A stretch of DNA of 64,000 bases from Chlorops oryzae (taxonomy: Eukaryota; Arthropoda; Insecta; Diptera; Chloropidae): assembly GCA_020466095.1 (NCBI GenBank), contig CM035806.1, forward strand, positions 70,013,077 through 70,077,076. Reading direction: 5' to 3'. The translations under genes and the position numbers were made by a program. Under the pieces are notes generated by a model that was not told where the DNA came from, did no database searches, and was given only the letters and a program-made list of their open reading frames with translations. Within the stretch, counting starts at the first letter, position 1. Each line of letters opens with the position of its first letter. Positions 47,332 through 49,263 of this stretch are shown here, in pieces.

Positions 47332-49263
47332 GTGGACACAGCGGTTTTCCTTACCGAGTCAAAAGAAATAGAAAAAGTATTAAAGGCGTTTCATGATACA
47401 CCAATCGGAGGTCATAAGGGATTTTTGAAAACGTATTTCCGAATTAGGAGGCAGTTTAAATGGGAGGGCATGCAAAAACAAATTAAAAATTATGTCAACG
47501 CATGCAAACTCTGCCAACAGAACAAAAGCTCGAGAGCCGAAAGATTGCCAATGACCATAACGGACACTCCCCATAGGCCATTCGACAAAGTTTTTATGGA
47601 CATAGTTGGACCACTCCCAGTCTCACCTAGAGGAAATAAGTACATCCTCACCTTCTTGGATGATTTTTCCAAATACTTTCTCTGTATTGCCATCCCTGAT
47701 GCGGAAGCAACAACTATAGCAAGAGCATATTTTAACGAGATAATTTCAAAGTTTAATATTCCACGGACACTAGTAACGGACAACGGGACAAATTTCATGT
47801 CAAAATTGTTTAACGAAGTTTGCAAAATTCTCGGAATAAAGAAGTCTCAAACTTCCCCGTACCACCCACAAGCCAACGGCGCTCTTGAACGGACTCACCG
47901 ACCGCTTGCGGAATTCCTCCGAAATTTCGTCAAGGAGGATGGCACCAATTGGGATGAATGGCTGCACCACGCTATACACGTGCATAACAACACAGTCCAT
48001 TCATCCACAAAACAAACACCCTGCAGAATTCTTTTTGGCTTCGAATTTGAAATTCCATTAAATTTAAAACAAAAACCTGCACCCCTTTACAATCCAGACG
48101 ATTACAGTAAAATTCTAAAGTATCAGATTCAAAGGAGCTATGAAATATCAAGAAATAACCAAAAGAACGCGAAGGCAAAGTCAAAAAAATATTACGATAA
48201 AACTACGAAGGAAAGGCAGTTCAAGATAGGAGATAAGGTTTGGCTAAAAAATCAAACCAAAGAGCACAAATTTTCACCAGTGTGGCGAGGGCCGTATGAG
48301 GTAGTCGAGATTCCTTCTCCGACCAATGTGCGGTTACTGATAAAAGGGAAAAAGAAAACTTACCATAAAAACTTAGTTAAGATTCATAAACAAGAAATCT
48401 GCGCAGTAGAATGTATATTAGATCCCAAACAATCAAATACATCAGATATTTTAGAAGATGCAACCAATATGAACGACATAGTCGAAGAATACGAAAAGCT
48501 GTCGAAGGTAAGCAATGAAAATACAATTAGTCATTTTTTGAAAAATAAATCAAAAAACAGATTCTCAAACGTGAAGTGTTTCGATCATAGCCGAGTGAAG
48601 CTCAAATCAACAAGCAAAAGGAGATCAGATTACATTCATGCCAACTATGTGAAGGGATTTCATTGTACACAAAAATACATTGCCACTCAAAAGCCGACAA
48701 AACAAACATTTAATGACTTTTGGCATATGGTTTGGGACGAAAATTCTTTCGATATAGTTATGTTCACAGAACCAAATAAAAAAGCAGAAAGTTGGCAATA
48801 TTGGGGAAGAAGCATAAATGACATAGTTATATGTGGAAATTTGCAAATTCGTACTTTAGAAACAATTACAGAAAATAATTACGTTCATAGTAAAATAGAA
48901 TTGAGAAATTTAAACAATGATAAAATCCGAGTAGTATCGCATTGGCAGTTTTTAAGTTGGCCAGACGGGGGCACTACCAACCCCGCAGAGCTATTGAAGT
49001 TCTGGAAAAAAGTGAAGCAAAATAATAATACATACTCGACAATGATCATTCATTGTATGGCCGGCGTTGGACGAACCGGCACAATCATAGCATTAGATAT
49101 AGCCATCGACAGTCTCAACGCAGGTTTGAAACCAAATATTCCTAAGATAGTGGAAGAAATTCGTGAACAACGGGCTAATGCAGTAGGTAATAAAGACCAA
49201 TACACATTTATATACAGAGCGCTTTACCACTATAGCAAAACAGTAGGGACTCGAGCACAGTAA
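47332..49263 (+). CDS. Integrase-protein tyrosine phosphatase fusion
   Basis: The ORF is open from 47251 in this frame; residues are counted from 47332. An HHCC zinc module (His21, His28, Cys58, Cys61) is followed by the DDE core (Asp90 in FMDIVGPL, Asp150 in VTDNGTNF, Glu186; D-x35-E spacing) and a GPY/F C-terminal module (WRGPYEVVEI, about 320). After an acidic linker a protein tyrosine phosphatase domain covers about residues 384-640. It has NRFSNVKCFDHSRV (substrate loop), DYIHANYV, TQKPTKQTFNDFW, SWPDGG (general acid Asp545), IIHCMAGVGRTG (nucleophile Cys575, Arg581) and DQYTFIYRAL (Gln623). All catalytic residues are present; TQGP reads TQKP, and the substrate-loop Tyr is Phe411. Integrase inserts cDNA; the phosphatase would remove phosphate from phosphotyrosine. 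It has no intron. Confidence 0.9.
   Translation: MDTAVFLTESKEIEKVLKAFHDTPIGGHKGFLKTYFRIRRQFKWEGMQKQIKNYVNACKLCQQNKSSRAERLPMTITDTPHRPFDKVFMDIVGPLPVSPRGNKYILTFLDDFSKYFLCIAIPDAEATTIARAYFNEIISKFNIPRTLVTDNGTNFMSKLFNEVCKILGIKKSQTSPYHPQANGALERTHRPLAEFLRNFVKEDGTNWDEWLHHAIHVHNNTVHSSTKQTPCRILFGFEFEIPLNLKQKPAPLYNPDDYSKILKYQIQRSYEISRNNQKNAKAKSKKYYDKTTKERQFKIGDKVWLKNQTKEHKFSPVWRGPYEVVEIPSPTNVRLLIKGKKKTYHKNLVKIHKQEICAVECILDPKQSNTSDILEDATNMNDIVEEYEKLSKVSNENTISHFLKNKSKNRFSNVKCFDHSRVKLKSTSKRRSDYIHANYVKGFHCTQKYIATQKPTKQTFNDFWHMVWDENSFDIVMFTEPNKKAESWQYWGRSINDIVICGNLQIRTLETITENNYVHSKIELRNLNNDKIRVVSHWQFLSWPDGGTTNPAELLKFWKKVKQNNNTYSTMIIHCMAGVGRTGTIIALDIAIDSLNAGLKPNIPKIVEEIREQRANAVGNKDQYTFIYRALYHYSKTVGTRAQ
48472..49260 (+). 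other. Captured protein tyrosine phosphatase domain
   Basis: An in-frame ATG at 48472 (residue 381 of the fusion) begins MNDIVEEYEKLSK, which resembles the natural N-terminus of single-domain phosphatases. So a complete coding unit of about 263 codons may have been captured. Cellular, polydnavirus and baculovirus-like tyrosine phosphatases all have this size; polydnavirus and insect forms look closest by eye. It could be translated as part of Gag-Pol and released by the element protease, or from a spliced RNA. The reading frame is undamaged. Confidence 0.85.

What the first reader, a model, noticed from the sequence alone, without database searches (positions are those of the whole stretch)
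47332..49263. Protein tyrosine phosphatase fused to the integrase of a Gypsy retrotransposon
Seen directly: one uninterrupted reading frame runs from the integrase HHCC, DDE and GPY/F modules into a complete tyrosine phosphatase domain with WPD, HCMAGVGRTG and Q-loop residues intact. Known: Gypsy elements may carry env or a chromodomain after integrase; I know of no phosphatase there. Inference: a cDNA of a cellular or polydnavirus-like phosphatase was captured and kept under selection, perhaps to alter host signalling or piRNA/tyrosine-phosphorylation control.
Basis: partly seen in the sequence, partly recalled or inferred. Interest (0 to 1): 0.95.

Follow-up and report, generated by a model that had tools for sequence, protein, structure and literature searches.

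The report
Gypsy retrotransposon with fused tyrosine phosphatase
A recently inserted jumping gene carries a complete tyrosine phosphatase fused to the end of its integrase, and a distantly related protein from another source has the same fusion, so this looks like a captured enzyme that was kept rather than an accident.

Summary
ORF 47251-49263 runs in one frame from a DD35E integrase and its GPY/F module into a complete class I tyrosine phosphatase (Pfam Y_phosphatase E 4.7e-66). It lies in a 10,481-bp Ty3/gypsy element with identical 759-bp LTRs and a GAAG target-site duplication. It is not a one-off: P0041, a nameless protein from a 1312-bp contig, has the same order, integrase tail, linker, phosphatase, at 42% identity over 354 residues. 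Catalytic Cys, Arg, WPD Asp and the second Q-loop Gln are kept in both; the first Q-loop Gln is lost in both, so 'Q-loop intact' is half right. Tree and fold place the domain nearest PTPN9/Meg2 and wasp (bracovirus-type) phosphatases. Best reading: an env-less gypsy lineage captured a Meg2-like catalytic domain, makes it as the end of Pol and has kept it under selection; its target is unknown. This copy itself has a gag stop and a pol frame break. The host genome could not be searched, so copy number, dN/dS and host remain open.

The parts
41208..41211 (.). 5' target-site duplication GAAG (3' copy at 51693-51696)
41212..41970 (+). 5' LTR, 759 bp, TGTTG...CAACA
   Evidence: identical to 50934-51692 over 759 of 759 bases
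41974..41991 (+). primer-binding-site-like sequence TGGCGCAGCCGG... three bases after the 5' LTR; likeness to a serine tRNA end is recalled, not tested
42388..43626 (+). gag, first part; ends in an in-frame TAG
   Evidence: no Pfam hit
43627..44520 (+). gag, second part, same frame; five CCHC-type knuckles 43858-44454
   Evidence: no Pfam hit at E 0.01
44484..47306 (+). pol: protease, reverse transcriptase, RNase H
   Evidence: Pfam RVT_1 E 1.1e-35, RT_RNaseH E 3.2e-35, RT_RNaseH_2 E 5.5e-36; Asp_protease_2 weak, E 0.0023, below its cut-off; overlaps gag by 37 bases in the -1 frame
47251..48387 (+). integrase (HHCC, DD35E, GPY/F), in another frame than RT-RNase H
48388..48477 (+). linker between the integrase tail and the phosphatase
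   Evidence: 4 of 32 residues shared with P0041; model pLDDT mostly under 50
48478..49260 (+). tyrosine phosphatase with N-terminal cap; signature HCMAGVGRTG at 49051-49080; stop at 49261-49263
   Evidence: Pfam 405-632 of P0001
49264..50933 (+). 3' region without env; longest open stretch 85 aa (+) or 88 aa (-); holds an A30 tract 49579-49608 and short tandem repeats
50923..50933 (+). polypurine-tract-like GGAGGGAGGTA
50934..51692 (+). 3' LTR

Best explanation
An env-less Ty3/gypsy lineage captured the catalytic domain of a PTPN9/Meg2-type tyrosine phosphatase, without that protein's CRAL-TRIO part, behind the GPY/F module of integrase. The phosphatase is translated as the C-terminal extension of integrase, joined by a short flexible linker, so it would be made at Pol levels and be packaged in the particle, or be cut free by the element's protease. 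It has been kept as a folded domain with its catalytic residues while the lineage diverged. It most likely removes phosphate from tyrosines of host proteins during particle formation, egress or entry; the lost first Q-loop glutamine hints at slow turnover. Shown here: the fusion, the complete element, a second diverged fusion, the kept catalytic residues, the placement near Meg2. Inferred: one capture, packaging, enzyme activity, host target. Split of the target: membrane traffic or egress 0.3, host defence or signalling 0.3, the element's own proteins 0.2, binding without catalysis 0.2.
For: One frame from integrase to phosphatase. Complete element with identical LTRs and TSD. P0041 has the same junction: 148 of 354 identical, E 1e-90; integrase tail 37 of 61, linker 4 of 32, phosphatase 105 of 255. 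Constraint: window and P0041 agree at 41 of 50 columns that most other phosphatases share, against 63 of 213 others, Fisher p 1.1e-11; under random substitution the domain gains a stop in 342 of 400 runs at 0.05 changes per site and in 399 of 400 at 0.2. Tree: window and P0041 sisters 96/90, with the PTPN9 and wasp rows 97/95. Fold: PTPN9 at Foldseek ranks 1-11 and VIA ranks 1-7. A window+P0041 profile ranks P0116, a CRAL-TRIO plus phosphatase protein, first among the other proteins held.
Against: No DNA of a second copy, so no dN/dS. P0041 is known only from a 1312-bp contig; LTRs or pol around it were not seen, and Pfam calls its integrase tail only weakly (best E 0.043, below cut-off). A clade of the window with the two wasp rows is not rejected (p-AU 0.623) and its tree scored 3.46 log units better than the free one, so a single capture rests mainly on the shared junction. 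By pairwise sequence score receptor phosphatases such as PTP alpha D1 (154 bits) stand slightly above PTPN9 (145 bits), and other phosphatases lie within about one Z unit of PTPN9. The first Q-loop Gln is missing. This copy has a broken gag and a pol frame break, so activity of the element is not shown.
Confidence: 0.7

Rival explanations
1. Repeated capture: gypsy elements gained Meg2- or bracovirus-like phosphatases behind integrase more than once, and the window and P0041 are separate events.
For: The tree that holds the window with the wasp rows instead of P0041 is not rejected (p-AU 0.623). Bdelloid LTR elements gained the same ORF3 type at least twice (PMC5408684, passages).
Against: Same junction point and similar linker length; integrase tails 37 of 61 identical; sister support 96/90 and 99/70.
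Confidence: 0.17
2. A one-off insertion, retrocopy or assembly join of a host phosphatase into an ordinary gypsy copy, without function in the element.
For: Only one copy with DNA could be seen; an A30 tract behind the phosphatase might be the tail of a retrocopy; gag and pol of this copy are broken.
Against: P0041 has the same junction at 42% identity; identical LTRs and a TSD enclose the whole; the phosphatase runs in frame with integrase; the nearest AATAAA or ATTAAA lie at 49320 and 49434, far upstream of the A30 tract.
Confidence: 0.05
3. [quoted passage not shown]
For: First Q-loop Gln lost in both fusions (G, S) and in the two wasp rows (M, L); precedents in passages and a section of those papers.
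Against: Catalytic Cys, Arg and WPD Asp, which traps lack according to PMC3573978 section 8, are kept in both fusions.
Confidence: 0.2

Closest known systems
Chromoviruses (Ty3/gypsy elements with a chromodomain after GPY/F)
   Same: A host-type domain fused behind the integrase GPY/F module (PMC2774666, passages).
   Different: Here the domain is an enzyme, a tyrosine phosphatase; no chromodomain match at E 0.01. 'Phosphatase' does not occur in that text.
LTR elements with captured enzymes: bdelloid GDSL esterase and DEDDy exonuclease ORF3s, orchid gypsy AlkB
   Same: Captured enzyme genes kept in LTR elements (PMC5408684 passages; PMC9289625 abstract and section 12).
   Different: Those are described as additional ORFs; here the enzyme is fused in frame to integrase and is a tyrosine phosphatase.
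MDG1-group elements with sORF2
   Same: Insect gypsy elements without env that use an accessory protein; there it serves cell-to-cell passage (PMC11952523 abstract and sections 7, 10).
   Different: sORF2 is a short membrane protein upstream of gag in most cases; 'phosphatase' does not occur in that text.
Baculovirus and polydnavirus tyrosine phosphatases
   Same: Captured host-type phosphatases in mobile or viral genomes of insects (PMC3320614 passages; PMC3573978 passages and section 8); wasp rows group with this domain.
   Different: Those are free-standing proteins; here the phosphatase is part of Pol.
PTPN9 / PTP-Meg2
   Same: Nearest cellular subfamily by tree and fold; about 35% identity to P0116, with the helical cap before the domain.
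   Different: No CRAL-TRIO part; first Q-loop Gln lost.

Membership tests
Ty3/gypsy LTR retrotransposon (Metaviridae) | paired LTRs with target-site duplication, primer site and polypurine tract | tested here: met
Ty3/gypsy LTR retrotransposon (Metaviridae) | protease, RT, RNase H, then integrase in this order | tested here: met
   (protease match weak, E 0.0023)
Ty3/gypsy LTR retrotransposon (Metaviridae) | RT or integrase falls in a named gypsy clade in a tree | not tested
Errantivirus (env-bearing gypsy) | env gene after pol | tested here: not met
   longest open stretch in 49264-50933 is 85 aa (+) and 88 aa (-); an env disrupted beyond recognition is not excluded
Chromovirus | chromodomain after the integrase GPY/F module | tested here: not met
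   no chromodomain match at E 0.01 in P0001
Class I (classical) tyrosine phosphatase domain | full-length Y_phosphatase domain with HCX5R, WPD and fold | tested here: met
Class I (classical) tyrosine phosphatase domain | both Q-loop glutamines | tested here: not met
   first is Gly, second present
Class I (classical) tyrosine phosphatase domain | phosphatase activity | not testable with these tools
   needs the purified domain
PTPN9/Meg2 | catalytic domain groups with PTPN9 | tested here: inconclusive
   grouped with two PTPN9-type and two wasp rows at 97/95, order inside unsettled; the PTPN9 labels of P0116 and P0047 are mine, from domain content, a cut-off record name and tree place
PTPN9/Meg2 | N-terminal CRAL-TRIO domain | tested here: not met
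   integrase stands in its place; no CRAL-TRIO match
Bracovirus phosphatases | one clade with bracovirus phosphatases to the exclusion of PTPN9 | tested here: inconclusive
   window with the two wasp rows not rejected, p-AU 0.623

The most novel reading that the evidence does not exclude
A lineage of env-less retrotransposons carries a Meg2-type tyrosine phosphatase as a standing part of Pol, packages it in its particles and uses it in place of, or alongside, other spread factors: to promote vesicle fusion and cell-to-cell passage (Meg2 is reported to promote secretory vesicle fusion, PMC3446372 passage) or to damp tyrosine-phosphorylation signalling in the cell it enters. Bracovirus phosphatases and this lineage may share one mobile origin, which one search does not exclude.
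Probability: 0.25. Interest if true: 0.92.

Novelty: new variant of a known kind. Interest (0 to 1): 0.8.

Why it matters
A retrotransposon with a built-in, conserved signalling enzyme would show that selfish elements without an envelope can act on host phosphotyrosine signalling, would give a biochemical handle (an enzyme with substrates) on how a retroelement deals with its host, and would offer a possible route by which insect viruses such as bracoviruses gained phosphatase genes. In seven full-text searches aimed at such a fusion I saw none in the listings (two searches listed 15 of 493 and 15 of 167 papers); they cover only an open-licence library.

Tried and rejected
Chance or artefact: rejected, the junction recurs in P0041. 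Proteins of about 640-670 aa among the hits looked by length like further fusions; ten of the 39 were scanned with Pfam and showed no integrase, and an integrase-tail profile run over all 233 proteins held matched only P0001 and P0041. Viral contigs with four queries and prokaryote genome contigs with one gave no relative. The third protein search was swamped by tandem-domain receptor phosphatases; 120 of 2200 hits were listed and the other 2080 were not seen. Poly(A) remnant: the A30 tract was considered as the tail of a captured mRNA; no poly(A) signal in the usual place, left open. Base composition of gag, pol, integrase and phosphatase by codon position was not decisive. Rfam and tRNA scans of the window were empty. 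Host: eight other ORFs scanned with Pfam gave mobile-element domains in four, DUF4780 in one, a weak DUF1280 match under its cut-off in one and nothing in two; host not established. A structure of the integrase tail: that part of the model is poor (pLDDT about 32-54) and was not interpreted.

Full report
What is there. The frame 47251-49263 is open from stop to stop, 670 codons. Pfam finds the integrase zinc-binding domain, the rve core and a Y_phosphatase domain in it, the last at E 4.7e-66 over profile positions 1-233 of 234. Integrase residues HHCC (21, 28, 58, 61), D,D(35)E (90, 150, 186) and the GPY motif (320) are in place (P0001 numbering). Against PDB sequences 355 distinct chains match at E 0.001 or better, of which 60 were shown, all phosphatases by name. 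One detail is not: of the two Q-loop glutamines the first is Gly here; catalytic Cys, Arg, the WPD Asp and the second Gln are present (names by recalled PTP1B numbering).

The element. Self-comparison of the window shows 759-bp direct repeats at 41212-41970 and 50934-51692 without one difference. They begin TGTTG, end CAACA and have GAAG on both sides; a primer-site-like TGGCGCAGCCGG follows the 5' LTR and a purine tract precedes the 3' LTR; the element is 10,481 bp. Inside lie gag with five zinc knuckles, then protease (weak Pfam match), RT and RNase H, then integrase-phosphatase. Between the phosphatase and the 3' LTR no open stretch exceeds 88 aa, so no env is seen; a short sORF-type protein is not excluded. 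No difference in 759 LTR positions means a recent insertion; I give no date because the host's rate is unknown.

Not a one-off. A search with the phosphatase part (77 hits) returned P0041, 362 residues from a nameless 1312-bp contig. Its first 65 or so residues align with the integrase tail, then come a short linker and a full phosphatase. BLASTP to P0001 covers both parts in one run: 148 of 354 identical, E 1e-90. By part: integrase tail 37 of 61, linker 4 of 32, phosphatase with cap 105 of 255. Pfam by itself sees the tail of P0041 only weakly (best E 0.043), so precomputed Pfam lists would miss such tails; I therefore ran an integrase-tail profile over all 233 proteins held, and only P0001 and P0041 matched. 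Those 233 are 39 hits, 77 (five of them shared) and the 120 listed of 2200, plus P0001 and their kin; 2080 hits were never listed. Candidate lengths were limited to about 354-1125, 146-465 and 553-1759 aa in the three searches (0.55-1.75 times the query, by the tool's text). Viral and prokaryote contig scans gave no relative.

Selection. Without DNA of a second copy dN/dS could not be computed. Two indirect tests. Columns that at least 80% of the 18 other phosphatases in alignment A2 share are kept by the window in 42 of 50 cases and by P0041 in 49 of 50; the two agree at 41 of these 50 and at 63 of 213 other columns, Fisher p 1.1e-11 (columns with a gap in either, or with letters in fewer than 14 of the 18, were left out). 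Random substitution of the 261-codon stretch gives a stop in 85.5% of 400 runs at 0.05 changes per site and in 99.75% at 0.2. Two open frames that differ at 58% of residues have therefore been constrained. If there were two captures, part of this constraint could be older than the captures.

How it may work. As the last domain of Pol the phosphatase would be made with integrase at Pol levels. Meg2 is reported to promote secretory vesicle fusion and to dephosphorylate receptors and STAT3 (PMC3446372, listing and passages), and PDB titles show it with NSF and Munc18-1 peptides. MDG1-group elements show that env-less insect gypsy elements can pass between cells with an accessory protein (PMC11952523, abstract and sections 7 and 10). 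Baculovirus PTP is a captured phosphatase that serves as a virion component independent of its activity (PMC3320614, passages), and some bracovirus phosphatases are thought to trap substrates while others are active (PMC3573978, section 8). From these I infer, without proof, a packaged phosphatase that acts on host membrane traffic or signalling. That the first Q-loop Gln matters for turnover is recalled, not looked up.

Novelty. Extra enzymes in LTR elements are known (bdelloid GDSL and DEDDy, PMC5408684 passages; orchid AlkB, PMC9289625 abstract and section 12; plant additional ORFs, PMC7264820 passages), and so is a chromodomain behind GPY/F (PMC2774666 passages). A tyrosine phosphatase there was not seen in the listings of seven full-text searches, two of which listed only part of their matches, and 'phosphatase' does not occur in the four texts searched for it. 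I file it as a new variant of a known kind.

Limits. The host genome tool did not complete (20 calls), so copy number, sibling copies, donor gene and host are open. An insect host is plausible from the neighbouring BEL/Pao element with a Baculo_F-type env and a Mos1-type mariner but not shown.

Noticed in passing
52987-64000 (minus strand): A BEL/Pao element with a Baculo_F-type env ORF (54066-55490) and LTR-like repeats 52987-53411 / 63578-64000 at 97.9%.
   Followed up: partly
57626-58687 (minus strand): A mariner transposase ORF of Mos1 type (HTH_48, Transposase_1) lies inside that BEL/Pao element, between its Peptidase_A17 parts.
   Followed up: partly
44925-44978: A membrane-like hydrophobic stretch in the pol ORF between the gag zinc knuckles and protease, Kyte-Doolittle maximum 1.5 over 19 residues; role unknown.
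   Followed up: no
49579-49608: An A30 tract behind the phosphatase, about twice as long as any other A or T run of the window (next 16 and 15); origin unexplained.
   Followed up: partly
P0003 (Dryococelus australis protein): Stick-insect protein with several phosphatase stretches that groups with the wasp phosphatases in the 45-row tree (95/88 for its clade); possible horizontal transfer or mis-assembly.
   Followed up: no
P0001, P0041, P0044, P0046: The first Q-loop glutamine is replaced in both fusions (G, S) and in the two wasp phosphatases (M, L) but kept in the PTPN9-type P0047; shared descent or parallel loss.
   Followed up: partly
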